Part shown: positions 987 through 63,559 of the stretch, piece by piece | Layout of the letters: each line of letters starts with the position of its first letter | Position numbering within the stretch: the first letter of the stretch is position 1 | From: an uncultured bacterium | Lineage (GTDB): Bacteria > Patescibacteriota > Gracilibacteria > Absconditabacterales > Absconditicoccaceae | Direction: 5' to 3' | NCBI GenBank assembly: GCA_947169045.1 | Contig: CAMVOC010000003.1 | Span: 28,823-92,822, forward strand | DNA: 64,000 nucleotides | Notes under the pieces: model-generated | Told to the model about the DNA's origin: nothing | What the model saw: only the letters and a program-made list of their open reading frames with translations | Database searches by the model: none | Translations under genes and position numbers: made by a program

Positions 987-3569
987 ATGTCAGAAGAAAC
1001 TACTACTCCTATTACTCCAATTAATAAAGAAATGGAGCACTCTGTGGAGAAAGAAATTTCTCAATCTTATATTGATTACTCGATGTCAGTGATTGTCTCT
1101 CGTGCTTTGCCGGATACGAGAGATGGATTGAAACCTGTAGTTAGGAGGATTCTTTATTCTATGTATCAGCAGGGGAATTTTTATAATCAGAAACATAAGA
1201 AATCTGCGACAATTGTTGGAGATGTAATGGGAAAGTATCATCCTCATGGAGATGCTTCGATTTATGAAGCGATGGTAAGGTTGGCACAACCTTGGTCGAT
1301 GAGGTATCCGTTAATTGATGGGCAGGGAAACTTTGGTTCTATTGATGGAGATGGAGCTGCTGCGATGAGGTATACAGAGGCAAGAATGACAAAGTTGACC
1401 GAAGAAATGCTTAAAGATATCGAACAAGATACTGTTGCATGGAGAGATAATTTTGATGGGTCTCGTCAAGAACCTGTGATGTTGCCTACGAAATTTCCTA
1501 ATCATCTTTGTAATGGTACTATGGGAATTGCGGTAGGAATGGCGACAAATATGGCTCCACATAATTTAACTGAGGTGCTGGATGCTGCTCTTTTGCTGTT
1601 GCAAAAAGAGGGGAAACCTATGATGGCTACTGTGATTAATGATCTTTGACTTGAAGAGGAAAAGGAGGTGAAATATGAAGTAAGTATTGATGAAATTATG
1701 GAGATTATTAAAGGACCGGATTTCCCAACTTGAGGATATATTTTTGACTCAGCTAATATTAAGGAAGTTTACAAAAAAGGAAAGGGTTGAATCGTTGTAC
1801 GCGGTAAAACTCATACTGAAATGTATGAAGATTCTCATGTAATTGTGATTGATGAGATCCCTTATATGGTTAATAAATCTGCACTTGTTGCAAAAATTGG
1901 GGAATTGGTAGTCGATAAAAAGATTGAAGGAATTGTGGATATCCGTGACGAATCCAATAAAAATAAGAATCGTATTGTTTTGTATCTTCGTAAAGGTGTC
2001 AATCCTGATGCAGTTTTGATTCTGCTTTATAAATTTACTGATTTGCAGACTAATTTTAATATTAATAATGTTTCACTTGTAGATAACGCAACTCAACCGC
2101 GTTTACTTAATATTAAAGATTTGCTTTGGGAATTCGTGACTTTTAGGCGTGAGGTAGTTTTTAAGCGTTCTAATTTCCAGTTGAAAAAGGCAAAAGATAG
2201 ATTGCATATTCTTGAAGGTTTGAAAAAAGCAATTGATATTATTGATGAAGTAATTGCAGCGATTAGATCTAGTTCTACTCGTGCAGAAGCGAAGGAAAAA
2301 CTGATGGCGAATTTTGATTTTTCTGATGAGCAGTCAGAATATATTTTGAATATGAGGCTTCAGGCATTGGTTGGCTTGGAGATTCAAAAAGTGGTTGATG
2401 AAATAGAAGAAAAGAAAAGGCTGATTGAAGATCTTACAGAAATTATTGCTAATCCAGCAAGGCTTGATGAGGTCGTGGCAGAGGAGTTTGAATATATGAA
2501 AAATAAGTATTGAGACGAAAGAATGACGGAATTAGTCGATGATACGAATGTTTATAATATTGCTGGAAGTATTAAGGCTTTACAAGCTCAGGCTGATAAG
2601 GTGAAAGAAGATGTCATTTGTTGGATTGGAAATGATTATTCATTGAGAGTATTGTATCAATCAAGAATTCAAGTAATCCCTGATGAGACGCTTGATTTAA
2701 TTTATACTCATAACCAAGATAAACTTATTATTGTTACGGATAAAGGTGAGTTGGTAGTTCAGAGATTGAAAGATTTTTGAGGACTTACTATGGCAAAACC
2801 TGCGATTAACCTTAAGAAACATTTTGATTTGAAAGGAAAAATCGTATTTGCTAAGACGTTACATTTTAACTATGATTATCTGGTATTTCTGACGAATCAA
2901 AATAATATTAAAAAGATTGATAAAAATCTGGTTCTTTCTTTTAAAAAGTTTCCAACCGTGGTGATGAATTTGGCAGAGAAAGAAAGAATTGTGGGAGTTG
3001 AAGCTGTAGTTGATAGTTATCATTTATGAATACTGAGTAGACAAGGACAAATGTTGTTGTTCCCTGTATCAGATCTTCGTCCAATGGGAAAAACTGCTGG
3101 TGGAGTTAAGGCAATTGAGCTGCTAGATGAAAAAGATGAAGTAGTTGATCTCTTCTTACATAAAGATGAGCCATTTATTCTTATTCACTCTGATAAGAAT
3201 GGAAAACTGCTTTCTCTTGAAGATTTGAAAATTTGGAAAAGGGCTAAAAAATGACAAATTGTGTCTACATGAAATGATGAAATTGAAGGTTGAATCTCTA
3301 TTGTCGAGGGGTCAATTAGGATTAGGTTTGATGATGGATCTTTGACTACTTTGCATTCTAATAATGTCTACTTGGATGAACCGGAGACTCCGCTTCGTAA
3401 AATGGTAGATCAGCATATTGATATTGTTTATCGTCCATGGGAAGAAAAAGATGAAAATATAAGGTATAAAGAAGAAAAAAAGAAAGCGGGAAAAGAAGAA
3501 GTAAGTTTATTTACGGATGTTGAAAAAGCACCAACAGAAGAGGAAAAACAAGAGGAAAAATCTGAGTAA
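987..3569 (+). CDS. gyrA: DNA gyrase / topoisomerase IV subunit A
   Basis: Six track ORFs in one frame fuse across [34 protein letters not shown] and GPDFPT[G]GYIF motifs; ends TAA. GyrA versus ParC not resolved. Confidence 0.9.
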
Positions 3570-8528: not shown

Positions 8529-8556
8529 TTGACTTTTTTATTTTTTCGATTATAAT
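8529..8556 (+). promoter_or_regulatory. Candidate promoter TTGACT-N16-TATAAT for the giant gene
   Basis: TTGACT 8529-8534, TATAAT 8551-8556; ORF start at 8680. Confidence 0.55.
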
Positions 8557-8679
8557 TTATTTTTAGCTCTTATGGCTTTTTATTAGTAAGGTATCACATT
8601 TTTTGTAAAAAGCAAGGGGAAAAAGCGAAATTTTCCTCTTTTTCTTTTTTTTTCTTTGTAAAAAGTTACAATTATTACT

Positions 8680-11600
8680 ATGCACAAAGGTAAAAAGAAA
8701 TTAGTTTTTTTAACGTTGTCAGTGTATTGTGCGGGGCTTTTGCTTCAGCATTTTTCAGCTTTTTTTGAAGTAATTGCAAAAGAGGTGAATGTTCCTCATG
8801 TAAATATTGTTGCTGTTTTAGTTGATGATCAGCTGGTTTCTCCGTTGAATAACGATCTTCAGCGATATGCAACTAATTATATTCAGCAGGAAATTGTCGA
8901 TAGTAAGGCGCTTGTCTTGCCTTTAGACCTTGCAAATCTTGATGCTCATGATGTTTATACGATGCTCGAGAATGTGTATTTTGATGGGCTTTCTTGAGTC
9001 AATTCTTCCCTTGTTTGAGTTGTTTTGATTGGTGAAATTCCACTTCCAGTCGTTAATCAAGATGGATATATTTTCCCTACGATTTTCCCGTATGTAGATT
9101 TCTTGGATCAGAAATATGTACGAGATGCTTCATCTCAGTATTTTATTCCTAATTGAAATGCTGATTCTCAAGCTGAAATTTGGCATGGTTTGATCGATTT
9201 TGATACGGTAGAGGAGTATCATCAATTTTTTGAGAAAATTAGACAATATAAAGCTGATCCATCGTGATTTATTGGTGATCAACTACGATATGAAGATTTT
9301 ATTGCGAGTAAAAATGCTTTTTTGTCTGAGAATACTCAGTTTTATCAAAATAAATTATTATTCGCAGAGGATCTAGATTATCAGAGATATACTCCGTTGA
9401 TGCTTCAGCTTTTTCAGGCTGGTCAAAATGAAACAATTAATTCTTTATTGATGGGGCTTGGAGATGCTTTGCAAAAGATGTGAGGCGCAGAGCTTGCTTC
9501 TGATTTTACTTATACGGATGCTGATGGGAATCTTCAGACGATGAGTGTCTCTGATGGGTTGTCTGCTGGAGTTAATTGACAACTTCAAACAAAATCCGTT
9601 GAACAGGCCGTCAAAAAGAGTTTTTTGTTGGATTATTCTTCCTTATTTAATCCGATGTTGAGTGTGGTGCAGAGAGATAACGCTTTGGCAGGTGGAAGAC
9701 GAGTAAAAACTATTACTTGATCAGATGGAAATGCGACATTGTCGCCGAAAGTAGATTCTTCTGCAGAAATGATTACGATGAAGGATTTGATTAATGGGGG
9801 AAACGTGAATATTCAAGGTGTGCTTACGAATTTCAATACTTTATTGGAGGATGCCGTGGATAAAAAAATAGAGAAAGAGCGTTATGATATGGATATTGTC
9901 TTGCCTGTGAGTTATAAGTCAGAGTTTCAGTTGGGAGTAGATATTGATTATCCATGGTGGTATCCGAAAAAACGTGAAACGAAGATGATGCCGTTCTCTG
10001 TGCAGTATGATACTTTTTATTTTGGGAAGCGTGCGAATTTCATTACTTCGGCTCAAGAATTGAGCATGTATAGGGGGACGTTTAGAAATTTAGAGACATT
10101 GAGTGGAGTGCAATATCCAGCATTGCCATATTCTTCACCTGATCAAAATCCGGTAAAGTCTGCTCATGATGTGACTAATCTTATCTTGAAATCTATTGGT
10201 GCTTCTTATGATGTGTTTTCTACGCAGGTAGAGGCAAATAGGGGATATAATTTGAAAAATTCGCAAACTGAGTATGAAACGTATCAGGCAGAAAAGACGT
10301 ATGCTAAGTTTGAAATGACTTGTAAAAAATGGACTCTTGATTTGAGCTGGATTAAAGAGAATTGGAAATTTGGTTGTCAATTAGTACAACGATGACCTGC
10401 AAAAGATAGTTTCAAAGGGAAGACTTTGGAATGTGATCCAAATGATAGAAAGAAACAAGGTTGATGTGAGGATCTTTCTCAGTTTGCTCAGAGGAGGTGG
10501 GGAGGAGCTTCTCCGATTAATTTGGATATGACAGGGCTACAAAAAAATGGAACTTATGAACTTGTTGATTTTTCTGGATTTAATGCAGTAAAGGAGATTT
10601 ACGATATTGGAGGTAGTAAGGCATTACAGGAACCTGAACGGGATGCAAATAGTTATCTTGCGTATCAAACTTATGCTTCTCCAACGGCTATTAAAACGTA
10701 TGAATGGTTACGCTCTGACGAAACGGAAGAAAAGGATTGGTCTCCTAGTCAGATATTGAATACGAGTTTTTATTATGATTCTTTGCCGGATGAAAGATAT
10801 CCGAGGCGATCGTTACATTTGCCATTTGAAGAGGTAGATTATTTTGCTGATCGTATAGGTCTTCCTGGTCTTACGCAGTGGGATGTTAAGCGTTGAGAAG
10901 AGGAGAATACGTTTTCACAATCTCAACAAAAGGTTCCTGAAGATAAAAAGAAATGTACCAATAGTGAAAAGACAGGAGATCCAAATCGTTGTGCTTCTTA
11001 CAAGGAATATACGTATAAAATTATTCCTTCTGTGGTGAAAAATACGGCAACAAAACTCGATGAATTAAATGGATATCAAACGACGTTGTTTGCTACGGGA
11101 GGGGAGAGACATTATTATTTCCAAATGTTGTCGAAAGCGATTGGGAAATTGGAAGCGAATATGACGGGCGCATCTGTGCGTCAAATTCATGAGTTATGAT
11201 CAGGAATTCAGCTTTCTTTATCCTCTCTTTCAGATCGTTTGTTGGCGATTTCTGGAGAAGTGGCTTTAGCAGGGAATTTAAACAATAGTAAGATTGCGGG
11301 GGAAGTGGATGCGATTGCAACGAATTTGAAAGAAAATCAAGAATTATTCACTCAAATCTATGATTTGTTGGATGCTATTGAATCGAGCGCAGTTGTGATG
11401 GCGATGGAAGAGATTAGAATGGAAGAGGAATCTTTGATTAATCAGGGGGTAAAGATTCCGTTTGCGAGCGGTTGGTATGCAGATATTAAGCAACATTTGG
11501 AGAGATTGACGAGCTTGTATGTTGCTAATATGGTTTCAGCATATAAGGAGGAATATTCCGCTATTGAAACTCAACTTGCTAGTTTGTCGAGCACTACTCA

Positions 11601-14600
11601 GGACATTATTGATTCTGATGCATATAAACTTGCTGTAGATGCGAGATATTTGGATGTTTCTACGCAAGAACAGCTTGAGAGCTTGATCACTTCAGTTGGT
11701 GAAGTGTATACTCCAAATAGAAATGCTTCTGCGTATTTCTTTACTAATTTCTTTCATATTGTTCCTCAGAATCAGGCGTTAAAAAAGGCTGCAGCTACTT
11801 GACCTGTTGCTAAAAACTTGCATCAAGAGGCTTTAGACCTTTTTGATGCTACTTTTGAGTCTAGAGAAAAAGATGAACCGTTGAAAATTCCATGACTTAA
11901 TCTTTTAACTCTTGATCGTCCTGTGGATTCTCCGAGATATGTTACGTTTCAGTCAATTGGGAAAACAGAAATAAAGCTGATTTATCCTGATCTTTATAAA
12001 GTGCCAGTGTTTAAGATCTCTGGTGATACGCAACAATTAAAAACTATTCCTGAAATTACATCGGCTTTGGAAATGTATTTCCGTGCGAAAATTGCGGAAT
12101 ATAATGATTCTTTAAGAAAAGTTGTTCCAACTACTGACACCCCAGAAAAGTATCAGCAATTACGAACTTTAGGATTCACGGGAGCAACTCCAATCAATCG
12201 TTCTTATCAGAATTTTTTTACTTATGATGATTTATTGCAGGCGATAGGTGGAGAAAAGCAATTGCAAGTGATTGCTGAATTATTGTATTATCAGAATCTT
12301 ACTAATCTTGAGAAATCTTCTTCAAATAATGTGCTAGAGGATCTTAATTTGATTAAGAAGACTTTTAATATTAATAATAAAATTTCCTATGTGCTACAGG
12401 AATATTTGGTACATGGAAATCAAAAAGATGCTTTGCTTATTCCTAATTATCAAAAGACTGGATATGAAGTAGCATATATTAATTCGGATGGAGATGATTA
12501 TTTACAAACGGTTGATACTCCGGATTTTATTTCTGCTACTCAGGCGAGGCAAGAACTCTTTGATGGTGTTAATGCTACGTCTACGGAGGAAGATGATTTT
12601 TTTGGGGCATTGGAGGATAGTTGTGGTATTCCTGAAGATGGTGCGGTTATGATTTTTGAATATTCAGGAGGGACTTTGACTTCTCCTCGATGGGATGCAT
12701 TTAAGTGTTGGCTCTATGGGACGGGAACGCTTTCTGACCCTCAAGATCCTGGAGTGTTGCGTACTCCGCTAAAAATTAGATTGAATAATGCTGAAGCGCT
12801 TTGACCACGGTTGGATGATTTGAGTATGAGTGGTGCTTTTGATTATCTTCTGCGTGAAAGTGGAGTAGAACGTTGGTTAGATGAAATAAAAGATTTTGGA
12901 AGTGAATGGGTAGATTATGCTAAAAATGTCCGAATTGATACTGGAGTGGATGTTGTGACCACTAAAACATTGCAAGAAGTTGCCAATCAGAAACAGATTT
13001 CTTCTAATCTTCAACTGGCAAAATTGTATGGAGATGTAAAAGTGTATGTAGATCCTCTTAGTTTGCGTGTTGATGATTTAAAGCCTCAGACCTTGGATAT
13101 TACTGCAGTTGCGTCAGCTGGTGATGTGTTTTTCAGGATTTATGGAACGGGAGATGCCTGTTTGCAAGCGGATGGAATTGACTTGTGTACTCAGCAGATT
13201 GAAAAACAATTTGATCCTGTTAAAGATCCTCAGAGCATATCGCTTACTTCTACAGCAGGGAAATCTGGACGCTTTTTGGTCAGTGTGGATATTTGTTTGC
13301 CTGGAGGAGAAAAATGTGTGACAAAATCACATACTGTTACGGTACAACCTGGTATGGTAGATCGTTTTGAATTGAAGAGAGATTCGACTACTTCTGTGAA
13401 ATGAATGTATACAAAGATGCAATTGACGGCTTTTGATGCAAAGGATAATCTTATTGATTGGTCGCTTGTCCCTTATGAATTAAAGGCGACAGAATGACAA
13501 ATTTTATATGATGGAGTACTGAGTTCTTCTCACACATTTAATAGATTTAATAATCAGACGTTTTATTATCGTGCATTTTTGACGGGAACAGCTTCTTCTA
13601 CAACGATAGAGATTCTTCCTAATAATGAGACAGAACAGCTCAAGAATACTACTTATGAACAAAAGCTTGTTACGGGGACCCCTGTGGTAAGTGTTGATAG
13701 AAAGAAAATTGCGTTGTATGAAACAGGTTCTGAACAAATTAACATCTTACTTACGAATGATGCTACAGCTTCCTTTAGGAAAAATGTTATTTTGCAGATT
13801 CAAGATGCTCAGGGGCATGTTGTTGGCGTAGATAGTGATGTACGTATTCGTTCTGCTCAACAGCTTTTGCGTGTCGGAAATCAGTTTTCTGATGGAAGTT
13901 TTTCAAGCACTACAGTATTCCGTCTTTCTAAAGGTCTGCTTTCTTTTTCTCTTGATTCTCTTAAACAGGCGGGGGAAGATCTTGTGATTATTGAAATTCC
14001 TGGGTTAGATCCTATTTATCTTACTGTTTTAGTTCAGGCGGCCCCTGCTTTTAAAGTATCTACGGTATTCCCTGTTGAGAAAATGCAGGTTGGAGAACAA
14101 TTGACAGGGTTCCTTACGATTACGGATCTTTGGGGAAATCTCGTGTCTTCAGCGACCAATATTCAGTTAACTATTACAAAAAATTTGCAGGTTGGCTCTG
14201 TCGCCCAGCAAACGAGGATTTTGATGATTACGGGATCGAAGGAAATTTCTGTAAGAGGTACTGAAGCGGGTATTGGATATTTGATGGGACAAGTGATGAG
14301 TAATCCTGATGCAAGGCCAGATTATGTACGTATTACGGTGAGTGATGCTTTGTTGCCACAGACAGGACTTAATGTTATGTATCTTAATTATTTTGGTAGT
14401 GATTGGTGAAATCAGCGATGATATTTTTCTCATAATTATAAACAAGTAGAAAAGTTGGCTACTCATTCTGAAAAATTGATTACTACGACGACACAATTGG
14501 TGGATGAAGAGAATATTAGGCAAATGGTTTGGTGAATTTCTCCGGAATGATTTATTTTAAATGCAGGAGGATTACAAACTTTTCTTACAATTGACGGAAA

Positions 14601-17600
14601 TCAGCTTTCTTTCTCTATTGGATCAGTAGCTGAAGGACAGTTGATAGTACAGAATTTGCAAAGGATGAAAGTTAATTCTGAAAGAGATGCAGTTGCTAGG
14701 ATTCAAGCTGGACGTTTACATGCTACAAATGTGCTATTTTATGTTTTAGATGATACGGAAGATCGTTTACCAAGGAATGTATCTTTGCAATTATCCAGTT
14801 CAGCTTTAGGTTGACGCTACCAAATTTGGAATTTAGTGGATGGAGATATATCTTATGGAACGGCGATTCTCTGGCTTCCAAATTTTACTTTCTCGAAGGA
14901 TGCTTTTCAGGTGAAAGATGCTAATTATTTGGTTGCATCAACTTTTTCTTGTGGTTCTACGGATGCTCAAACTACGATAGGAATCTTTGATATGAGGACT
15001 ACATTGAGTTTGGATGCAGGTTTCCTTTCTTTGCAAGATAGTGATCAGAGAGATGAATATATTGGATTTAGGGGAGGTTTTAAAAATATTTCTCTTTATG
15101 CGGAAGGGGAAAGTGTCGGAGAAGCAACGAAAAAATTCTGATCAGAACTTTTGATTAATCTGGGGGATCCTTTGTTACGTACTCGTGATAAAAATCCTGA
15201 TTTATACGGTACTACTTATGATGGAGGACTTTGACAAGCGGTATTTACTGATCCAGATAAAACGATTTTGCAGTCTCATCCTATTGATTTTAATAATGAT
15301 GGATTGAAGGATTTAGTGGTGGTGTATACGGATGGGACAGTGAGACTTTTGAAAAATTATGGAAAGCCTGTATCTGGAGGGCAAAGTCCTTATCAAGATT
15401 TGGAGACCTTATTACTGGTTGCAGACCATATTGATGAAGTATTTGTGGGAGATGTAGATGGAAATGAGTATGAAGATTTGCTGTTTAGGCTTCAAAATGG
15501 TGAAATTCGTGTGTATCTCAATACGTGAGGTAAATTTGCTATTGATGGGCAATTAGTGTGTTTGAATATCAATGTGCAGGATGGACAGCAACAGCCTAAT
15601 CCTTCGGATATCTCACGTATTCAACAGATCTTTTTTGAGGATATGGATCATGATGGAGCGCTGGATATTATTACCAATGACGCAAGGTGATTTGTAAAGA
15701 TTTTTTATGGTGGAAAAACTCAGGGACAGGCAAATTATTTGAGTAGGGAATCTACTCATTGTGATGATGGGCGATATGATAGACAAAAAAATACAACGCT
15801 GACGGTTGCAAGGTTTGGATTGACGTTGGATGAGCGTTTAAAAGTCGTTGATAATAGTATGGTAACCTGGGAAGGATTGGATGTTTCTTCACTGAATCCT
15901 GCAGAGAGTGTGGAAATTGATGAGAATTTGCAAAAAGAAATTGATGCCAAAATGCAGGAAATGGAGCAACAACCTTGAGAATCTGATGATGATTTTGCTG
16001 AAAGAATGGAGAATTTTCAGGCTGAAGAATTACAATCTCATCTTCAAGATATTATTAATGAATATGCTGGTAAAGATCAGATGCTTGGTGCCGTATCGGA
16101 AGTTGTTGGAAAATATCAAGAGTTGACTACAGATACTCTTAATGGAACTTCACAAAAACAGAATGTGCGAGTCCCTATTAGTTATTTGGAAGAGGAAGAG
16201 TGAGACGCTGTGCAAGTGTATAAAACGTATAAGAATCTTAGTGGGGACATTTTGGAACCGTGAGATGTTGTGCAGGTGACGGTGCATTTAACTGCGTTGA
16301 AATCATTTCATGGAGCCTTTGGAGATAAGATTCAGTGACCGCGAAAGTATACAACTACTGCTTGAGGCTATCTTTCGTCTTTAGTGTCTGATTTGCGTTT
16401 CTTTACGAGTAATGGCGGTGGTGCTATTCATAAAAATGGTATTTATGTCGTTGGTAATAATAATGGATTGGTCCTTCATGGGAAAGATCAGAATTTTACT
16501 TATATTTTGGATAATATTGTTTTACATCCAGGGGAGACTCTTGAATATTCTTATCAGTTGATTTATAGAGAGATACCGCTTCAACATATTACTCTTGAAG
16601 ATGTCGAAGGATCAGATTATGACTTGGCTTTTCAAAAAGATGAGCTTTTGGATATTAAAATTCAGCCTGAGGATGGATGTCTGCGTAAGATGAGGCTTTG
16701 GGTAAATGATCATAGGAAAGCAAATAGATCTTATACAAGATATGATGTTGATTTACAAAAATATGTAGATGAGACTGTGGATATCTTGCAAAAAACAACT
16801 GATGAAAATACCGCAAGTTTGTTGTCTGGACTTACTACTATAGATGATTTAGAAGAGATTGCGAATGAACAGCCTCTTCTTAAGTCTTTGCTTAGAGCAA
16901 TAGGAGATTCATTTACGGAGGGAACGATGTTGAGTATCGATCTGAGTCTTTTTGAGGATACGATGCAAAGCGTTGAAGAAACTTTGAATGAAGTTGCAGA
17001 AGGACTTTGTAATGGATTTACTTTTTGAATTTCGAATCCATGTAAATGACTTCCTGTGCCATTTAATCAGGCTTTTTTGGCTCCTGGAAAGTATCATATT
17101 TTGGGATGCTATGATGTGGATGCATTAACGGAGATTTTATGAGGAGGAGTTCCGATATTTCATTATCCTGGAACTAGCTTTGTACTTGAACTTCCTATTC
17201 CTTTCTGAAAAAAGTGACCTTGAGATGAGTTTGTATGGATAAAGGGTGGAGTTTATCCTTCTATGTTTAGAATTTATGTTGCTCCTACGTTGACTGCACA
17301 GTTAGGAATTGCAATGTGTTTTTGACCATATTCGGTCTGAAATAATATTCCTTCTCCTTTTGCTGATTTGGGAGGAAATTGTATTGTTACTTCTATGCCA
17401 AATCCTCTTTGTAAATCTACAACTTCTAATCCTACAGAGACAGTAACGTCTCCTACTAAAGATTTGGGAAATGTAAGTTGTACTCCATCTCAGAGAGGAT
17501 CTGTTGTAACCAAAGTTGGCTTTGGAAGTAGCCCTTTGCGTGATACTATGACGAATGGAGCTTGAGATGAGGCAAATTTCTTATCGGATGGTTTTGGTTT

Positions 17601-20600
17601 TGTTATTTATGATATTGATACGGTAGCAGTTCCTGATAGTGTAGGTCAAGAGCCTTTCCCTAACACTTCCATCAATATTGATGGAGTAAAAATACAAGCT
17701 GATACTACTCAACGTAATACTCCAAAACAATGACGATTTGCAACACAATGGCAGGGAATTAGGAGAATATTGATTGATAAATTTATAGATCCTCAAATTA
17801 GATATCTGGCAAATAACTTGACGAAGATGCATTTGGAAATTAAGCGACCAGATATCAATGGTATTATCAATGATTTGGGTAATATTAGGATGTTAAATAC
17901 ACAGAGTGTTTTAGGAGGAATCGGTCAAATTAAGAATTTGTTTAATGCTAAATGAGGACAAACATTTGTGAATGATTTGGGTAGTGCTATTTCATTTAAT
18001 GATATTTCTAGACAGCAATCTTGGCTTTCTCAGGCTACGGACTATGTTAATGATCAGCTTTTGTCTAATCCTTTTGAGGAATTAGCGGCAATGTTTAATG
18101 CTACGAATATTATTAATGTAAGTACTCGTCAAGTTTCTGTGAAAGTACCATTGATTTATGTTGAAGATATTAATGCATACGAGCTTTATCTTCGTCAGTG
18201 GATTGATGTGAATGGGAAAATTATCGCAGATTGGATTGCTATGGCGGATACATTGACGAATTTGTGCTTGAATGAGAGGAGAGAAGCACAATGTGATGCT
18301 GATATGGAGCAAAAAATTAATGAAATTATGAGTTTTACGCAGAGATATGATGAACTTCTTAATCAAGTTAATCAAAATATTCTCACGTTACAAGAATATA
18401 GAATGTTCCCTTTCCAGCTGTATGAACGAGTACATGCGATTGATAGATATACTGCGGAAGTAACAGCGATTTTGAATAATACGTTTGGTTATGTAGCAAT
18501 GTGGATGACAAAGAATGCTACAAGATTTTCGAGTTATATTGATACCATTGTTTTGACGATGAATATTATCAAAACTTATCAAGTTTTGGTTGATTTTTCT
18601 GTGAATTGGTCGACTAGGTGCGGAACTTGTACTAATGATACCTATGATCAATATATGTGTAAACTTTCTTTTCTGTGTGATGGAGTAGATTTGCCGATTA
18701 TTCAAATTCCGAGTTTTAAACTTCCAAATTTGATTTTTGATCTTTCACAAGTCAATTTGAAATTAGATGTGTTGCTGCCAATTTTTAACCTTCAACCTGT
18801 GAAAATTGAATTACCAAATCTACCAAATCTTCCGACTCCTCCTGCTCTTACGTTGGATATGGATTTTCTGAACCTCTTTCCTCAGTTGAATTTGCCAACG
18901 ATTCCTCAACTTCCTACTCCACCAACATTGCCTGATTTGCCTTCATTTATTCCTAATGTTGAATTGGCATTACCTGTTTTACCTCCAGCTCCAGAGTTAC
19001 CAAAGATCCCTACGACGTTAGAGACTACGCTGAATTTTTTGGAGACAATTGGTTCTATTTATTGTCGAATTAAACATGGTATTGGATTTGTAGCAGAAAG
19101 TGCAGTAAAATCGAAGATTGAACAGCTTACTCAAAGGACGTATCGTGTGTGATATATTGATGATATGCTTAATCTTTTGAGTTTTAGGAATGATCCACCT
19201 GAATTGCAAGGCTTTGATTATGAAGTTTCTACTCAACTTAATTTGGAGTTTAATTTTGAGTTAATTTTTAACTTTTTGGATACCTTTATCCAGGAGATTA
19301 ACGATTGGTCTACCAGTGCTATTAAAGATATTGAAGACCTTAATACTGATTTGAGAGAATGGTGAAAGTCGGCTCAAGCATCTGGCGCTACTCTTCAACA
19401 GAAAGTAGATGATGCACCTGCGAATCTTCTTAGTTTATCAACGCCTGCAGATCAATTGGAATATGTAGATTATCAAGAGGCGAAAGAAAGATTTGATCAA
19501 GCTTTGACGTCATTTAAACATGCAACAGAAGAAAATTCTGAATTCCAAAAACGTTTAGTTGCTCTTGAAAATGAGGTTCATACTCCTGCTCAGGTTTCTC
19601 CTAATCAGGATCAGTTATCTCAGATACAGGGACAGGTTTTGGAAGTTGTTGCTTCTTCTCAAGATGTTCTTAAAAAACAATCTCAGCTTCTTGCTAATGC
19701 AAGTGATGATGAAGTGTGGGATGCTTATGAATGAATGTTGGCGAAGTTACAGGCTTCTTCGTCTTCTGAAGCTCTTGCTTGATCTGGAGAGAATCCTGAT
19801 GTTGAAGAAAATCTTGCGTTTAATTTCAGCTTTTTCTCTGTTGATACTTGATTGCAAACTCAACTTAAACAGTATGAACATCCGTATAAAATCATTTTGG
19901 ATAATAGAGTAGGTATTATGAGTGGATTTATTGGTGCATTGGAAACTCATACTGCAGAGGAATTTGGTATGACGGAAAAAATGTATCAAAATACGAAACA
20001 GTCTTTCTCTCGTGCGCAACAGCAACTTCTTGGATTTTATCAGAAATTTACGCCAACTCAGCAAACTGTTTTGACAAAGAGTTCTTCAGAATCGGCTACT
20101 TTCTCTAAGACGTTAACGACACAGCTTGGAGATAATACTTCTCCTTCGTTAACTCAAAGCTTGCAGGTAAATGCCAATGAATACGTAGGTGGAGTGCTTG
20201 TAAGAAATTCTTTAGGATCTTTTACTAATGCGTTGTATTCGTCTTATAATACGAAGAAAGTGCAGGATTCGTTCTTTTTGGAGGATGTAAATAACGATGC
20301 GTCTGAAGATATTATTATGCGAGATACTCATAGTGTGTATATTAAATATGGTAATCAAAATGCTAGATATTTATGAGGAAATCCTACTACTGATACTAAA
20401 TTTTATTTGGCAAGTACTATTTCTTCTCTTTCTCATCAGCCAACACGAATTACTTTCGATTCGGCTACAATCTTAAAAATTTCTGATTATCATGAAGAAG
20501 TGAAAAACTTTGCTATGCATGGTCAGAGTTTTGATGATATTTCGTTCTCTTTTAGGAGAAATGTAGAGGATACGGTCGCAGGATATCTGATAAAATTTAC

Positions 20601-21981
20601 AGAGAGAGTAGATTATGCTCCAGAAAAAGAGGATCAGAAGACTCCAAGTTTGATCAGTGCTTATGTATTGGTACTGCCTCAGAATACTTCTTTGGATGAG
20701 CTTCAGCTTTCTCTTCCTTCTTTACCTCTTATTAAAAATGTTGAGGAGGAGGTACAGGATTGGAGGACTCCAGAATTGAAAAAAGCTACAAAAGACAGAT
20801 TGATTCATGAGGTTGTGTATTATGATACTACGCTTCCTTCTACGACGGTGGTAGTGCAACAGATTGAGAGGAATTGGCAATATGCAAAGATTGCAACACT
20901 TAGAAAAGATGGGGCTGGAGTATTGAAAATTGCGTCTCCTTGGTCTCATCAGGTTGTTGCTGGAAGACAAATTTTGGCGGATGATCAAGGACCTGAGATT
21001 AAAGCTTTATTGATGAGGCCTCTTACTTTTGAAACTGTTAGTTCTGGAACTATTTTAAATGGTTTTGTCGGTACTAATTATACTCTTATGATACAGTGAA
21101 TAGATACTGTTGCGTTAGCTGATTTGCAGGTGTCTCAAAATGGAGTCGTTCTTGGGGAACTTACGGGTATTAACAAACCTACAGCTACTATTCCTATTCC
21201 GAAGCTGTTTTTTACGGGGACGCAACAACAACTTTATGATGTTATAGCGAGAGATCATGCTTGAAACGAGACAAAAAAGACAATAAAGCTGAATATCGAT
21301 GTGCCGGAAGTCACTATCACATCAGTAGAAAAAATCAGCGATACGTTAGCTCGCATTGTTGCTGAACTTTCGCAAGATATTGATCAGGGTTTTGTTTCTT
21401 TTCAAAAAAATAGAAATGATACATGGACGAATATGATGACTGACAATGGGGAGAAAGATTTCGTATTAGCTCCGAAGAAAACTGTTATTGTTGGTGAGAC
21501 TTATACTCTTGATAATTCGATTGGAATGTATGATAACAATAAACAATTGATTGCTAAACTTGATCCGGAAACTGGGAAAATTACGATTCAACCTGAATAT
21601 CAAAAGACAGTTTCCCTTGCTGTTGCAACACAGAACAATCATCCAGTAGTTCAGGTTGTCAGGGGGAATACGGTACTTTTTGTTGTGAATTTTGAGCCGT
21701 TGGAATTGGTAAATATTACGGTACCTGCTTCTGCTTATAAAGTAAGTGTGATTGATAATGCAGATTTTTGATCTTTTGTTGGAGGTAAGGCAGTATCTCG
21801 TAATGGAGATTTGATTTTACAGGTGTCTCCTAGTGGAAACATTCTTATTCCGAGCAATAAAAAACTTACGGGAAGTTATCAGTACAATGAAGAACATAAA
21901 ACCGTGGTGTACTCTTTGAGGGAAAGTGCCTTATCCGCTGAGGTTATTCAAGTAGAAATTAAGATTCAGCCTTTTAATTAA
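8680..21981 (+). CDS. Giant secreted/surface protein (4,433 aa) with FG-GAP/VCBS-like repeats and a Pro-rich PNLP segment
   Basis: Gaps between the 20 collinear track ORFs were read codon by codon: only TGA interrupts (about 50), no TAA/TAG until TAA at 21979-21981. N-terminal signal/anchor MHKGKKKLVFLTLSVYCAGLLL; DFNNDGLKDLVVVYTDGTVRLL-type repeats. Confidence 0.9.
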
Positions 21982-25513: not shown

Positions 25514-27742
25514 ATGAAACAGTTTTGGAATAATAGGAAAGTGGTGTTATCCATTGTACTTTGACTTTCTATCATTATTGTGTTTTTTATTGCTTGGACC
25601 TTTAACGGTGAGACTCTTAAGAGAGGATTGACCTTTACTCCTCAAGGGGTGTTATCTTTCAGAAAAGGATTGGATATCTCTGGTGGAACTAAGTTGACGT
25701 ATAGAGTAGATTATAGTAAGTATGCAGAAACTTATAAAAATTCTACTGAATTACAGTCTGTCCAAAATACGGTACAAAATATTATTCTTCAGAATATTGA
25801 TAATCGTATTTCTAAATTGGGAGTTAGTGATTACAAATCTTATACTCAACAATTAAATAATGAAACGCAGATTGTTGTAGAAATTTGAGGAGTTGCAGAT
25901 CTCGATCAGGCAAAAGAAATTATTGGTAAAACCGTTGAACTTGAATTTAAGTTGCCAAATGAAGACGAAGGTGATGTAGAAGCTAGGAAAGCTCTTGCTG
26001 AAGAATATTATCAAGATATTCAAGGAAATCCTAATAAAATGGCTGAGCTTACTGAAGGTAAGACTTCTGAAAATGTGTTTTATCATAAGTACGATGAAGT
26101 AAGTTTGGCTCAGTTGCCAACGTTTTATCAGAAACAATCTCAGCTTTTAACTTCTTTGTCTGCTACTACAGGAAAATTTAGTGCAATTACTGAGGGAGTG
26201 TATGGAGATTCTGTCTCTTATGATCAAGAAGGAAATCCAATGGTACTTCCAGTTGAAGGATTTACGTTTTTTCGTGTGTTAGATTCAAAAACTCAGGAAA
26301 GAACTGCTGTTACTTATCAAGATGTGATTGAAGTCCTTGCTCAGATGGGAGTCTCTTATAGTACAGATTTGAATTTACAAAACTCTGATCGTGGCGTTGC
26401 ATCTGGGGATTATCAGTTTATTGATGGAACATTGCGATTTAATAACGGAGAATTCTATTCAGGTCAAGAAGTACTCAATACAAGGATTTTAGCCTTAACT
26501 CAGGAGAGTACATTAGGAAAGACATTGGAAGAAACGTTAGCTGCTAATGAGGCTTTTGCAGAAAAAGTAACAGAGATAAAAGATGAATTAGCTAAGGACT
26601 TAACTCAAGATATTCCTGATACATCAGAGGCTTTTGATGGATGGATTGCACTTAGCGAGCTTCAACAAGCAATTCCTAGTTTTGATGCCGCAGCGACAGA
26701 TGTGATTCAATCATACGAAGGGGATAATGGAGTGACTTATATTTTGATTATCAACGATAAAAAACTCGCTACCGAGCATAAATATTCTTTTTTACAGGTA
26801 GATTGAGTGGATCAGTCAGCTTTTTCTTCTGCTTTAAAGACGCAGACGTTGTATACCATTGAAGATCTCTTTGTACAGGACCGTTTGACGTGGGTAACTG
26901 CTCAAACTCCAGATGGAAAGATCTTGAATGGAGCTAACTTTAAATATGCGGGAGTAAGTAATTCACAACTTGGACAACCTGTTGTTGTGCTGAATTTCGA
27001 TGATCAAGGAAAAGAAATTTTCTGTCATATTACAGAGAGTAATATTGGAAAACAAATGGCGATTTTTATTGGAGGTCAGCCTATTACTGCTCCAGTTATT
27101 CAGTCAAAAATTTGTGATGGATCTGCTCAGATTGATGGACAATTTACTCCAGCTTCTGCTAAGGAACTTGCCAATTCTTTAAATGATGGAGCATTGCCTG
27201 CGCCTTTGATCTTGATGCAGGAGGAGAAAGTGAGCCCAACGCTTGGAGATAGCGCTTTCTCTGGGGCTGTCTTTGCGATGTTTATTGGACTTTTCTTGAT
27301 TTGGGTGTATATGACGATTAAGTATGGATTTAAAAAAGGTCTGATTTCACTTCTTTCTTTGGTAAGTTATTTGCTTGTGCTTTTGGCAGTTGTTAAAGTG
27401 ATTGATTATGCGTTGTCTTTGTCAGGAATTGCTGCTATTATTCTTTCGATAGGAATGGCTGTAGATGCGAATGTTTTGATCTTTGAGAGGTTAAAAGAAG
27501 AAAAAGCTGAAGGAAAGACGGATGATGTTGCTATTAAAAACGCTTATGAGAGGAGTCGAATTGCTATCAAGGATGCTCAGCTTTCTACCTGATTGATTGG
27601 ATTATTGTTATTTATGATGGGAATTAATATGTTTAAAGGTTTTGGAGCTATGATTATCGTTGGAGTATTGTTGACGTTGTTAATTAATGTGCCTTTGATT
27701 CAAGAATTGTTACATCTCTTTTATCCTGTTAAGAAGAAATAA
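25514..27742 (+). CDS. secD: Protein translocase subunit SecD
   Basis: GLDISGGTKLTYRV, NIDNRISKLGVSD, IVVEI[G]GVADLDQAKEIIGKTVELEF, IILSIGMAVDANVLIFERLKEE. Confidence 0.9.
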
Positions 27743-28314
27743 TGAAAAAAAATGCTTGTTATTTGTGTTTGTTAGTACTTTTGTTACTCGCTGGATGTGG
27801 TAAACAAACGGCGATAGAGTACAATGATGCTTTGGTTGATGCTACTAAGGCGTGCTTGACGGCTGAAGTGCAGGTGTGGGAGTCTCTAGCTCAAAGTGAT
27901 ATTCCTTCATCTAGCGATGCTTTGCAAACGGCGAAGTCTACGTGTGAGGCTTCTCATGCGACTGTTAGTGATTTGGGAGATTTTGATGGTGATGGTCAGC
28001 TTTGAAAGACTGTTGAAAATGTTTTATCTGTGGAACTTCAGTATTTGTCTGTTTTGGAAGAAGTGCTTTCTTATAGTACTGATACTCCTTGGACTGATGC
28101 TCAACAAGAGGAATATCTTGATCTTCAAGAACAATTAGCTGCTCTTAGAGCTCAAGCGATTGAACTGTCAGAACAAGTGGTTACCTTGCAAGAAGAATTT
28201 GCTCAACAGCATGATTTTGTCATTGAAGAAAGCGTTATTTCAAATGGTACAGAAGAAGCTTTAGTAGGGGATGGTGAAGGTACCGCTGAGGAGGAAGCTT
28301 TCATTGAAAGATAA
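27742..28314 (+). CDS. Lipoprotein
   Basis: MKKNACYLCLLVLLLLAGCGKQ lipobox; one TGA; ATG overlaps the secD stop (TAATG). Confidence 0.75.
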
Positions 28315-28421: not shown

Positions 28422-30002
28422 ATGACCGATTTGATCAATTCAATCCTTGATCTTTCACAAGTCCAAGCTTTGCACGTGGATTTTTCCCGATTGCAAAAAA
28501 TTCCTAGGCAACAAGCGGAACAGCGTCAGATAATCCTTTTTGATAGAGATGCCGATAAATTTGTACACGTCTTAACTACCAATAATCATCCTGAGGAATT
28601 AAAAAATTTTCTTGTGCAACTTACGAATCAGGGGGTTAAATATAAGGTATTTTATACTTCATTAGAAGGATTTTTGCACGCAGTGACGTGGTATGATCAA
28701 CTGGAGCAACAACAAGAACAGGAACTTCAGCAATTACAAATTCAACAACAAGCAAAAGGTCAGTCTGCAATTACTATTATGAAAGAGCTTTTTCAAAAAA
28801 GAGCAACTTTCGATCCTGGAAAATTTATTATGGAATTAGTAAGACTTTCGTTTCAATCTGGTGCTTCGGACTTACATTTTCAGCCTTCTGATACTTTTGT
28901 TGTTCTGCGTTTGAGGTTGGATGGAATTTTGCATGATATTTTGCAGTTTGATATTAAAGATTTTGGGAAATATTTGCAGAAACTTAAGTTTATCTCTGGA
29001 GTAAAGACGAATGTGAATTCTTTACCTCAGGATGGAAGATTTAGCTTTGAATCTCATACTCCACAAGGAGAAATAAAAAAAATAGATGCAAGGGTCAGCT
29101 TTATTCCTGGTCTTTTGTCTGAATCTACGGTGATTAGATTTTTGGATTCTTCTCGTAAGATCTCTACATTTCAGGATATTGGCTTTTTGGATAGAGAATA
29201 TAATATTTTGAAGCCATATTTGGCTAAGACTACAGGAATTATTATCGTCGCAGGTCCTACAGGATCAGGGAAAACAACAACGCTTTATACGGCGTTACAG
29301 ACGCTTAATACCTGAAAAACTAAGATTATTACGTTGGAAGATCCTGTTGAATATCTAATGCCTTGAATACAACAGTCGCAAATTGATTATTCTAAAGGGT
29401 ATGATTATGAAACGGGGTTGCATGCTGTGCTTCGTCATGATCCTGATGTTATCTTGGTGGGGGAAACTAGGTCTCAAGAAACGGCGGATATCTCTATTAC
29501 TGCGGCACTTACCTGACATTTAGTGTTTACGACTCTTCATACTAATAATGCTATTGCTTCGATTGAAAGGTTGCTTTCGATGAACGTGAAACCTTATCTT
29601 TTAGCTCCAGCTTTGCAGTTGGTAGTCGGGCAGAGGCTTGTACGTAAGGTTTGCCCACATTGTAGTGTTAAGACGGCTGCGAGTTATGCTGCTGATGCAG
29701 AGATTCAGCAGACGCTTTCTGCTTTGCGTCCTTTTGGCTTGAAATTGCCTGAATATGATGGACAAGTCTTGGCGGTCAATGGTTGTGAGCAGTGTAATCA
29801 TACGTGATATATTTGAAGAATTGCAGTGATAGAACTTCTAGAAATTACTGAAGAGATAAGGAATCTGATTGTTAATTCTGGGACTGCATCGGAGATTTAT
29901 GCTAAAGCTAGGGCTAACGGCTTTATTTCTATGCAAGAAGATGGAATTCTTAAAGTATTATCTTGATTGACGACGATTGATGAGCTACATAGAGTGCTTT
30001 AA
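28422..30002 (+). CDS. pilB: Type IV pilus assembly ATPase PilB/GspE
   Basis: GPTGSGKTTTLYTALQTLNT[G]KTKIITLEDPVEY, LRHDPDVILVGETRSQETADISITAALT[G]HLVFTTLHTN, CPHC...CEQC. Confidence 0.93.
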
Positions 30003-42404: not shown

Positions 42405-42448
42405 GGTTACTTCTTCTTTCTTTATTCTCTCTTTTATTATCGGTATTG

Positions 42449-43603
42449 ATGAAAAATATCAAAAAAAATCTTAAAACGGTGTCAGATAAATTAACGTTTA
42501 AAAGCTCGGCTATTGATAGTTTTATCGAGAAGGTTTTGGAATCTAGTGATAAATCGTGATTTACTGGTAAAGAAAAAATATTATTCTATAAAGAATTGGT
42601 ATATATGATGAAGGGAGGAGTGTCTTTGATTGCAGCTATGGATATTATTATTTCAAGTTCTGATAATTACGCTATCAAGAATGTAGCACAAAAAATTAGG
42701 TCCTACCTTAATGATGGAAAGTCTCTTTCTTATGCGATTAGTAGGATGTCGGAATATTTTGATGAAGGGGATGCAGCTATTATTAAGACTGGAGAAGCAT
42801 CTGGAAATCTTCCTGTTGTTTTGAAGTCTCTTTCTGAAGAATATGCTTATATTAAGGCCATTAAGGCTAAATATGTTGGAGCAATGATTTATCCAATTGC
42901 TTTGATTGTTATTTCTTTTGTTGCGGTGATTTATTTGTTTGCCTTCGTCCTTCCTGGAATTTTTGAAATGATTAGTGGTGGTGTGGAAGAAATTCCTAAA
43001 ATTACGATGTTTTTGATGAATTTAACAGATTTCTTTGTTAATAACTGGAAAAATCTTTTAATGATTTGATGAGCTGTGATTTTATTGTTTGCAGCGTATT
43101 GTTCGACAGAAACCGGTAAAAAATGGTTCTTTCAAACGATTATTCATGTGCCAATTTTAGGAGATATGACAAAGTTTTATTATTTGATTAAATGGGCTAG
43201 ATATTTGAGATTGATGGTCGCTGCAGGAATGGATTATGTAGATACGTTTAGGCTTTTGAGAGATATTCTTAAAATTCCGTTGTATCAAGATATGATTGAG
43301 GAAGTATTGGTGGATATTTCGTTAGGTAAGTCGTTGTATGAGCCAATAAGTCAGTATCCGCATGTAGTGCCTTCCAATGTTGCAGTTTTGATTAAGGTAG
43401 GAGAAGAGACAGCTAATCTTGAACATGCAATGGATAGTGTTATTGAATTGTATCAGGAAGAATTGGATAATTCTATTGAAAATTTCTGAAAAGCGATAGA
43501 ACCTGTGATTTTGGTCGTTGTGGGAGCTATCGTGATGCTGATCGCCCTTGGTGTCTTTGGTTTGATTTTTGCGGTGATGGATAATGTAGGTAATTTGGGA
43601 TAA
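42449..43603 (+). CDS. pilC: Type IV pilus inner membrane protein PilC/GspF
   Basis: YKELVYMMKGGVSLIAAMDIIISSS...SYAISRMSEYFDEGDAAIIKTGEASGNLPVVLKSLSEEY; duplicated T2SF domain. Confidence 0.88.
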
Positions 43604-43645
43604 TAACCTCTTGATTTTTTCTCTCTGCTTTGTATAAGTGGAGGT

Positions 43646-44215
43646 ATGAAAAAGGCATTTTCTTTGATAGAATTGGTTTTTGTAATGCTTCTTTTAGGAG
43701 TCATCGTTGTGCTTTGTATGACGGGGTTTTGATCACAATTTCAAAAATTGCAGCAAAAAGTTGTTAAAGAGGCGTTTTTAACTGAGTATCAGCAGGTGTT
43801 TACTAGGAATCTTACTTCAGCAATCCAGTTTGGTCAATTATATACTGGTATGCATATTTCTTTTTCTATAAATTCTTCAGGTTTTAGCGTAGAATATCTT
43901 GGTACTTGAGATTTTAGTCAGGCTAATTTTCAATATGCTGATCCTCATTTGGAGATTAAAGAGATTATTCCTTCTCCGTTTGCGACATTTCCAGATTCGT
44001 TAGAATCTCTTGTCCTTTCTTCTCGTCCTTATAAGTTTTCTTGTTCTTTTGTCTGACAAGAGGATGAGGATATTTGACCTATTGTTATCTCTACTCTTGT
44101 TAGGGGAAATCAGCCTTATTGCTTTTTGATTAATCCGCTTATGTGTAGATTAGTAGAAGTTCCTTGTAAACAAGTTCGAGTTGCTGATGAATATAAATAT
44201 TTGTTTAATTCATAA
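43646..44215 (+). CDS. Type IV prepilin-like protein
   Basis: MKKAFSLIELVFVMLLLGVIVVLCMTGF[G]; missed by the track because of TGA. Confidence 0.8.
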
Positions 44216-44868
44216 TGATGCTTATGAAAAAGAAGACTTTTACACTTGTAGAAATGCTTATTGTTATTGCTGTGTTTGGGACAGGTATTTTGACCGTACT
44301 TTACGGGCTTTCTCAAACTTTAAGGATGCAAGATAGAGCAGATATGATGGTCTCAGCTTCTTTTTTGGCGAGAGAAGGGATAGAGTTGATCTATAATTTA
44401 AGAGATGCGAATTATGCGAAAAAACTTGATTGGAATTGTATTTTTAGAAAGGTGAGTGTATCGGAGCTTAAGAAACTTGCTTCGGATTCTGATAATCCTT
44501 TTTGTGCTTGATATTTTACTGGAGGGGATCTTTTAAAACTTTCTATGGGGACTGATTGACAGTATTTGGCAGTTGAACGTTTGCCTGAACAGGAGAGTCA
44601 AAAACTTGAAAATGAGTGATTTGATGCTTTGTTCCAGAAATATCAGCTTTTTTATCTTATTGATGGGGCAAGATATTCGTTTGTTTATACTGGAGAGCAT
44701 CAGGGTGAGCCTTTACGATATGCAAGATATATCAAATTACAACCAGTGACCGATGGTATTGACGTGCTTCCTCTAGATAAAATTCTTAAGGTTGAGTCTC
44801 ATGTTTTATATAAAAAAGGTGCTTTAACTGGGGAATCTATTATGGAGACTTTCATTTGAAATTATTAA
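44215..44868 (+). CDS. Type IV prepilin-like protein (PilV-like)
   Basis: MKKKTFTLVEMLIVIAVFGTGILTVLYGLSQ; continues over several TGA to TAA. Confidence 0.8.
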
Positions 44869-44919
44869 TCTTAATCTCTTTTATTATGTGTGTTTTACCT
44901 CTTTCGAATTGTTGTTCTT

Positions 44920-45573
44920 ATGAAAAAAGCTTTTACTCTCGCAGAAACCATTATTGTCCTTGTTATTGTGGGGATTTTGGCGTGAGTGATCATTCAAAGT
45001 TATATGACTATTAGCCAATTAACGTTTAGGATTGAACAGAAGAAAATTCTGACAGAGGAAGCGTTGATGTTGACTCAGTTTTTTGATTCTTTAGTTCAGG
45101 ACTCAGAAATTGATTATGAACGTTATGCTAGTAGTTTGCAATCTACGGGTGGATTTGCAGATGTACTTTATTTGACCGGTAAGATCTGGAGTGGAACGAT
45201 GATTTATTCTTCTGGTGAGTGTCTTGATTTGGAGGGAGCATTTGAAAATGAGGGAGGCAAATCTCTTAATTTGACCGATTATTCCGGTTGCCAGCTTATG
45301 TTAAAACAAGGAAATAAACCTGAAGTTTCTCTCCTTGCGACAAATACTGATCAGTATAAAAGATTGATTCCATCGAAAGTGCAGTTTAGAATTATTCCTT
45401 TTGATTCTGATAGTAATTATATTCGTTCGGAATCACAAAATATTACCAATGATTTAGGTAAGCAAGGTGTTCGAGTCTTTTTACATTTGTATTCTTCATT
45501 TTATCAGCCGATAGGAGTGAATAATATTAGTCAGCCTTTACAACTTTTCTTTAATTTTAATGTGGCAAGATAA
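44920..45573 (+). CDS. Type IV prepilin-like protein
   Basis: MKKAFTLAETIIVLVIVGILA[G]VIIQSYMTI. Confidence 0.8.
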
Positions 45574-46393
45574 CTTTTGTCTTTCATCATCGTCTTGGAA
45601 AAAAGGAAACATTACGTTGTTGGTGATTTTTATTTTGTTGGCTTCAGCTTTGATGTCTTTGCTTGCGATGACTCAGCTGAAAAACATGATGAAATATGGA
45701 GAGACGACTAATAATTTTTTTAAAGCGTATTATTTGGCGAAAGCTGGCTTGGAACTTGCATTAACAGAAGTAAGTACGCGTGATGTAGGATTTCAGATTG
45801 TACATGTTAATTCGGGAGATGTGATTGTATCTGGGAATTTGAATACTCCTGATTCTCCTTATGTACCTTATCGATCTTGGACTATGTATGCGAGGAGTAC
45901 GGGTATGGAAGTGGAGCTTTGACCTAAAGAAAATATTACAATTCCGCTTTTTTTGGATCAAACCAGTACTCATCTCTTAGCTTTGGGTGATGGAATTCCG
46001 CTTGAAAACTTGGATTTTGTTAACAATAAGATTCAAAATATGAGATTTGAAGAACATGAAAAACCTGTAGATCCTTATATGGTCAGTGTTTTCTCGTATT
46101 CGGGGGATCAGAATATTTTTCAATTAGCGTTGAAAACTGATGATTCTGGAATTAATGGAATTTGGCAGAGACCTGCAGTAGAAAATTTTTTAAAGAGCGA
46201 TAAGGCTAAGAATGCTAGGACTTATTTGGTAATTTTTAATCAAGACACTCAAAATACAGGAAGTTTTAGGATTGATTGGAGTAATGAATTTGGCTTGCGA
46301 ACTACAGATATTACCTCTTTGGGACATTATGGAGATACAGAGATTGGAACACATGCTACGTTAACAGAGAAACCACCTTCTTGGAGTTTTTAG
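45560..46393 (+). CDS. PilX-like minor pilin
   Basis: KKGNITLLVIFILLASALMSLLAMTQLKNM...AYYLAKAGLELALTEV. Confidence 0.65.
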
Positions 46394-63298: not shown

Positions 63299-63559
63299 GT
63301 TCAGTTTTTTTTATCTTTTTTACGATAATGTCTTGCCATGTCATTTTTTTGTCTAAAATTGAGGAGGTATTTTTTACAAAGTCCCCAAAAAAAAGAGAAA
63401 TAAAAATGCTGACCTACAATAAAAAAAATGTAAAAATCTCTTGCAATCGTTCAGGAAATAGTTATAGTAATCCCTGCTTCGTTGAAATGACGGAAGCGAG
63501 ATGTTGATCCTTAACACCCCATACTATGATAATATATTACACAATTTTCGAAAGAAATA

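What the first reader, a model, noticed from the sequence alone, without database searches (positions are those of the whole stretch)
8680..21981. One continuous 13.3-kb ORF encodes a 4,433-residue giant secreted/surface protein
Seen: the gaps between the 20 collinear track ORFs (8680 to 21771) were read codon by codon; only TGA (about 50 by hand count) interrupts them, with no TAA/TAG until 21979. It takes up about a fifth of the window, has a signal/anchor N-terminus and a TTGACT-N16-TATAAT promoter. Segments look bespoke: N-terminal LVGVVLIGEIPLPVVNQDGYIFPTIFPYVDF...AEIWHGLI, long helical stretches, Cys pairs (CGTCTNDTYDQYMC). In a reduced, probably host-dependent lineage, such an investment suggests attachment to or predation on a host cell (inference). 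Under the standard code it would be about 20 meaningless fragments.
Basis: partly seen in the sequence, partly recalled or inferred. Interest (0 to 1): 0.8.

Follow-up and report, generated by a model that had tools for sequence, protein, structure and literature searches.

The report
Class-wide giant surface protein, pilus-linked
A tiny, probably host-dependent bacterium really does encode one 4,433-residue secreted protein; its relatives nearly all carry the same giant, and in several of them it sits in one gene row with the machinery for type IV pili, which suggests a class-specific cell-surface device, probably for gripping other cells.

Summary
Window 8680-21981 (+) is one open frame of 4,433 codons with 50 TGA and no TAA/TAG before 21979. 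It is not an artefact of recoding: standard-code relatives encode the same protein as single uninterrupted frames, up to about 7,900 residues, and at the window's TGA codons they carry glycine as often as at its GGN codons. It belongs to an undescribed family found in 109 of 154 genomes of the class (Absconditabacteria, Gracilibacteria, Peregrini-/Peribacteria), one per genome where checked, and in no other class of the phylum sample.

Parts: signal peptide; a domain like the non-catalytic half of gingipain-type (C25) peptidases; invasin-like Ig domains (seen by profile in one relative); FG-GAP repeats; an adhesin-type beta-sandwich; a conserved helical/LP-rich region. Eleven standard-code families add C-terminal SLH wall-binding domains. 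In those lineages up to four small secreted proteins (A-D) follow the giant; in several, pilB-pilC-pilin genes precede it directly. B, C and another secreted neighbour (E) persist elsewhere in the window's own genome.

Best reading: a surface-anchored or pilus-borne adhesin/scaffold used in contact with other cells. Secretion, family and gene linkage are well supported; the adhesive role is inferred. Predation is not shown.

The parts
8680..21981 (+). giant gene, 4,433 codons, code 25 (50 TGA = Gly), stop TAA 21979-21981
8680..8781 (+). signal peptide (KKK, hydrophobic stretch, V-I-A then K-E); an Ala at the same place is nearly invariant in the family
   Evidence: alignment and hydropathy; no dedicated predictor was available
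8800..9279 (+). N-terminal C25-like (gingipain subdomain-A-like) alpha/beta domain, residues about 41-200, without the catalytic half
   Evidence: Pfam PF01364 hits in two homologues, Foldseek RgpB 4ief_D prob 1.00, catalytic motifs fall beyond the match
9280..11079 (+). rest of the N-terminal module (to residue 800), modelled with pLDDT 81; no known family
12997..14379 (+). beta-rich region, residues about 1440-1900; the corresponding region of a standard-code orthologue holds Ig-like (GH2_C5 over cut-off, Invasin_D3, Big_1) domains
   Evidence: orthologue L039; no hit in the window copy itself
15286..15714 (+). FG-GAP repeats (PF13517, residues 2203-2345), calcium-type DxDxDG loops
16177..16749 (+). 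adhesin-type beta-sandwich, residues about 2500-2690
   Evidence: model; Foldseek RrgA pilus adhesin 5mkc prob 0.99, CLIPPER fibrillar adhesin domain 9ifr prob 0.97 (E-values weak)
16912..17499 (+). most conserved core, with four cysteines invariant in 57 sequences (residues 2788, 2880, 2901, 2934)
18115..19179 (+). conserved long-helix region, CxxC pair (3314/3317) and LP-rich strand region (residues about 3146-3500)
20047..21978 (+). C-terminal region, residues 3790-4433; standard-code relatives have SLH domains in their C-terminal region, this copy has none detectable
8529..8556 (+). promoter-like TTGACT-N16-TATAAT site (weak evidence)
28422..30002 (+). PilB-type ATPase (PF00437), 6.4 kb downstream; the homologue lies upstream of the giant, in one row with it, in Peregrinibacteria
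42446..43603 (+). PilC-type platform protein (homologue of the PilC upstream of the giant in relatives)
43646..46393 (+). prepilin-like ORFs (43646-44215, 44215-44868, 44890-45573, 45560-46393)
   Evidence: N-terminal sequences read; no profile run

Best explanation
The gene encodes one secreted giant surface protein, the core of a conserved module of its class. The protein leaves through Sec (signal peptide) and works outside the cell as an adhesin or adhesive scaffold. Its FG-GAP repeats, Ig-like and adhesin-type beta-sandwich domains and a catalytically incomplete C25-like domain make a long, probably disulfide-stiffened stalk with binding surfaces. In the ancestral arrangement it is bound to the cell wall by SLH domains, is made together with small secreted partner proteins (A-D), and is encoded in one row with a type IV pilus machine, with which it probably assembles or cooperates. 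In the window's lineage the SLH domains are not detectable and the partner genes are scattered, so the protein may be held by the pilus, by a partner, or released. Shown: the single gene, the class-wide family, export-type features, the domain hits, and the gene row in relatives. Inferred: adhesion, assembly with pili, and attachment to another microbe as its purpose.
For: Orthologues in 48 of 59 relatives and 109 of 154 class genomes with the C-terminal core. Gene row PilN/O-PilB-PilC-GspG-type pilin-GIANT-A-B-C-D on one strand in standard-code lineages, with the pilin 73-315 bp upstream in several loci. Giant followed by at least B and C, mostly A-B-C or A-B-C-D, in 12 families. B and C homologues in Absconditabacteria, including own genome G000:C2, and E with a T4SS-type pilin at G000:C13. 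SLH over cut-off in 11 standard-code families. FG-GAP, invasin-type Ig in an orthologue, adhesin-like sandwich, signal peptide. Precedent: in Saccharibacteria a pilus-locus protein with a beta-propeller (PilX2) is needed for full host binding (PMC12206443). Vampirococcus, an Absconditabacterium, has giant membrane proteins credited with its fibrous surface, and about 100 nm between it and its host (PMC8080830).
Against: No binding or localisation data exist. The pilus linkage is direct only in some standard-code families; in the window pilB is 6.4 kb away, and many Absconditabacteria loci show no pilus gene next to the giant. Families f5, f8 and f13 lack the giant; f5 and f8 have PilC, so pili in this class do not need it. 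Foldseek E-values are weak (0.008-0.07), and model 2 has a mean pLDDT of only 69.
Confidence: 0.55

Rival explanations
1. Envelope scaffold: a structural, S-layer-like or wall-spanning protein that shapes or protects the cell surface and has no dedicated role in gripping a host; the pilus genes are neighbours because pili must cross the same envelope.
For: C-terminal SLH domains in 11 standard-code families; one copy per genome and vertical descent fit housekeeping; SLH proteins abound in those genomes.
Against: SLH not detected in the code-25 copies tested, yet the rest of the protein is kept; adhesin-type and FG-GAP domains; no repeat array; whole families lack it.
Confidence: 0.27
2. Secreted effector or enzyme used in predation, exported or presented by the type II/IV-like machine, which damages the prey.
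For: C25-like fold at the N-terminus; pilus/T2SS-type machinery next to it in relatives; Absconditabacteria with cultures are predators (PMC8080830, PMC11452946).
Against: No catalytic or lytic domain found by Pfam or NCBIfam; the matched part of C25 ends before the catalytic His and Cys; no invariant Cys in the N-terminal module.
Confidence: 0.13
3. Active C25-type peptidase that processes the surface proteins of its own cell.
For: Foldseek prob 1.00 to RgpB over 153 columns; PF01364 over cut-off in one homologue.
Against: Catalytic half absent from the match; invariant residues do not include a His/Cys pair in the right order; the C25 score is below cut-off or absent in nearly all members.
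Confidence: 0.03
4. Artefact: chance open frame or several genes joined by a wrong code.
For: None found beyond the unusual length.
Against: Uninterrupted orthologues under the standard code, Gly at TGA columns, conservation along the whole length.
Confidence: 0.005

Closest known systems
PilY1 / PilC-type type IV pilus tip adhesins, and the PilX2 propeller protein of Saccharibacteria (PMC12206443)
   Same: Secreted, propeller/FG-GAP-type module with calcium-type loops, encoded with pilus genes (in relatives), organisms thought to attach to other cells
   Different: 4,433 aa, several times the size; no PilY1/Neisseria_PilC or VWA profile hit; N-terminal C25-like domain; SLH anchors in relatives; own set of secreted partners
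SLH-anchored giant surface proteins and bacterial fibrillar adhesins (invasin, DUF11 and CLIPPER types)
   Same: Signal peptide, Ig-like/beta-sandwich modules, SLH in 11 standard-code families
   Different: SLH not detected in this copy; no tandem Ig array; conserved unique core with invariant cysteines and an LP-rich region
Giant membrane proteins of Vampirococcus lugosii (ten longest 1,392-4,163 aa; PMC8080830) and very large exported proteins of Peribacteria (PMC4736985)
   Same: Same lineages, same size class, surface location proposed; the 4,163-aa Vampirococcus protein may well be the orthologue (not checked)
   Different: Those papers treat them as an unsorted set; no class-wide family, gene row or C25-like domain was found reported in the passages read
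Gingipain-type peptidases (Pfam C25)
   Same: N-terminal domain shares the fold of the first half
   Different: No catalytic half, so not a peptidase by the evidence here

Membership tests
PilY1/PilC type IV pilus tip adhesin | PilY1/Neisseria_PilC beta-propeller domain | tested here: not met
   Pfam scan gives only FG-GAP_3; a propeller-like repeat, but not this family
PilY1/PilC type IV pilus tip adhesin | N-terminal von Willebrand A domain or equivalent | tested here: not met
   C25-like domain instead; no VWA hit
PilY1/PilC type IV pilus tip adhesin | encoded with pilins or pilus assembly genes | tested here: inconclusive
   met in several standard-code families; in the window pilB is 6.4 kb away and the pilin cluster about 22 kb away
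PilY1/PilC type IV pilus tip adhesin | located at the pilus tip and needed for pilus function | not testable with these tools
   needs microscopy and mutants
Peptidase family C25 (gingipain type) | caspase/gingipain-type fold | tested here: met
   Foldseek RgpB prob 1.00, 153 columns, rmsd 3.0, E 0.068; PF01364 over cut-off in one homologue, partial in another
Peptidase family C25 (gingipain type) | catalytic His and Cys half | tested here: not met
   matches end at profile positions 161 and 207; the dyad of a true C25 lies at about 241 and 278; none invariant in the family
SLH-anchored surface protein | C-terminal SLH domains over Pfam cut-off | tested here: not met
   not in the window copy nor f22; met in families f2, f4, f6, f10, f15, f16, f18, f20, f21, f25, f149
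SLH-anchored surface protein | signal peptide | tested here: met
   hydrophobic stretch followed by a nearly invariant Ala
RTX/LapA-type repeat giant adhesins | long tandem repeat array | tested here: not met
   no tandem repeats in the DNA, no internal protein repeats at E 1e-3
This orthologous family (N-terminal profile A1, core profile A2) | both profiles match within one frame in the same genome | tested here: met

The most novel reading that the evidence does not exclude
The giant is the core of an undescribed, class-specific contact apparatus: a type IV pilus machine, one giant protein and several small secreted partners (A-D, E), ancestral to Gracilibacteria sensu lato, wall-anchored in standard-code lineages and changed to a pilus-borne or released form when the code-25 lineages lost the SLH domains.
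Probability: 0.3. Interest if true: 0.82.

Novelty: new variant of a known kind. Interest (0 to 1): 0.62.

Why it matters
How host-dependent CPR bacteria recognise and hold other cells is largely open outside Saccharibacteria. A protein that takes about 1.5% of an 0.87-Mb genome assembly, is kept in most genomes of a class, is unknown to Pfam and NCBIfam beyond its FG-GAP repeats, and travels with pilus genes and secreted partners in relatives gives a concrete, testable candidate. It may also account for part of the 'huge protein' excess reported, uncharacterised, for Peregrinibacteria (PMC11573180), and offers a clean case for studying giant-gene conservation across a change of genetic code.

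Tried and rejected
Sequence searches of PDB with the N-terminal and core profiles gave nothing meaningful, nor did a phmmer search with the FG-GAP region. Profile comparison of A1 with one true C25 protein gave no hit, so the C25 claim rests on Pfam hits in two homologues plus fold. NCBIfam gave only an FG-GAP-region hit far below cut-off. Pfam on the accessory proteins A-E gave nothing believable except T4SS_pilin for the 155-aa neighbour of E. The helical and LP-rich region has no match; pore-forming or tail-fibre readings were considered and dropped for lack of evidence. Active peptidase, RTX/LapA adhesin and code artefact were considered and rejected (see rivals and membership). The gene tree split of code-25 and standard-code rows has support of only 52, so it is used only as consistent with vertical descent.

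Full report
Observation. The frame 8680-21981 is open exactly as described: 4,433 codons, 50 TGA, no TAA/TAG before 21979, upstream stop at 8659. Chance is out of the question (about 10^-99). Of 59 relatives, 48 have the N-terminal third. Fetched full loci show single frames: 15 complete copies in the window's family of 4,133-4,913 aa. In the same class, standard-code genomes read the same protein with no TGA in it, in open frames of 3,762-7,874 aa. At TGA columns these orthologues show Gly at the same rate as at GGN columns (32.5% and 31.2%), so TGA is glycine in this very gene.

Family and range. Named records are Absconditabacteria/SR1 (including RAAC1_SR1_1), Gracilibacteria, Peregrinibacteria and Peribacteria. 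The window's nearest relative in the N-terminal tree is SR1 bacterium MS502-49, support 100; code-25 and standard-code rows lie on opposite sides of one weakly supported branch. With the C-terminal core profile, 109 of 154 class genomes match; families f5, f8 and f13 essentially do not (one marginal f5 match). In a phylum sample of 287 genomes the N-terminal profile matched only class members (13).

Anatomy. A signal-peptide-like start ends at a nearly invariant Ala. Residues about 41-200 are a divergent C25-type domain: Pfam PF01364 matches it in two homologues, once over cut-off, and the AlphaFold2 model (mean pLDDT 81) matches RgpB with probability 1.00 over 153 columns, though with E 0.068. 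The matched profile part ends before the catalytic residues, so it is a non-catalytic relative. Mid-protein Ig domains are recognised by profile in a standard-code orthologue, FG-GAP repeats in the window copy. Residues about 2500-2690 form a beta-sandwich like pilus and fibrillar adhesin domains. A conserved core has four invariant cysteines, followed by long helices, a CxxC pair and an LP-rich stretch without any match. Eleven standard-code families have C-terminal SLH domains, several with TSP3 repeats; the window copy and a code-25 Gracilibacterium (f22) do not. Genome-wide, code-25 lineages hold 1-11 SLH matches against 9-64 in standard-code ones, so the loss fits a wider trend.

Gene neighbourhood. 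In Peregrini-/Peribacteria loci a GspG-type pilin gene lies just upstream on the same strand (12 loci), and in several the row is PilN/O-PilB-PilC-pilin-giant-A-B-C-D, then uvrA reversed (PilN/O and uvrA named from the sequences, PilB and PilC by homology and PF00482). Iterated profiles find B and C directly downstream of the giant, mostly with A and often with D, in 12 families. In Absconditabacteria, E (Cys-rich, secreted) follows the giant in the six genomes opened, next to a T4SS-type pilin gene in several, and B and C homologues are kept, often in a convergent cluster nearby. In the window's own genome these are on other contigs: a 530-aa secreted protein, B (415 aa) and C (754 aa) on C2, E and the pilin on C13. 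In the window, PilB (28422) and the PilC/prepilin cluster (42446-46393) are downstream but not adjacent.

Mechanism. The best-supported reading is an exported adhesin or adhesive scaffold that works with, or on, type IV pili and small secreted partners; confidence 0.55. Shown by sequence: one gene, class-wide family, export-type features, domain composition, gene-row linkage in relatives. Inferred: adhesion, physical association with pili, host contact. Precedent comes from Saccharibacteria, where a pilus-locus propeller protein supports host binding (PMC12206443), and from Vampirococcus, where giant proteins were credited with the fibrous surface (PMC8080830). The main rival is an envelope scaffold (0.27).

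Novelty. The parts are known kinds; the family, its C25-like start, its partner set and the pilus gene row were not found described in the papers searched, a library that lacks most subscription papers and preprints. A preprint on giant genes in predatory bacteria known to me was not in the library and could overlap.

Noticed in passing
G039:C21 around 30198 (family f5): A family that lacks the giant has a different 7,295-aa open frame carrying an SLH domain; perhaps a replacement.
   Followed up: no
class genomes: Code-25 lineages have 1-11 SLH matches per genome, standard-code lineages 9-64: a possible loss of SLH-type wall anchoring along with the code change.
   Followed up: partly
L188 (G000:C2:56500-67500), L189 (G000:C13:2000-9000): Own-genome secreted proteins of 530, 415 (B), 754 (C) and 332 aa (E), plus a T4SS-type pilin, related to genes beside the giant elsewhere.
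   Followed up: partly
L076:1894-9781 and related loci: In some standard-code families a multi-membrane-helix protein (about 800 aa) and a 1,800-aa protein precede the giant; no Pfam match for the first.
   Followed up: no
window 8614-8640: Terminator-like hairpin with T run between the promoter-like site and the ATG of the giant; could be attenuation or chance.
   Followed up: no
window 27742-28314: 190-aa predicted lipoprotein with a DFDGDGQ calcium-type loop, between SecDF and PilB; no Pfam match.
   Followed up: no
window 1-64000: No tRNA found by ARAGORN; a large-subunit rRNA begins at 63557 and runs off the window.
   Followed up: no
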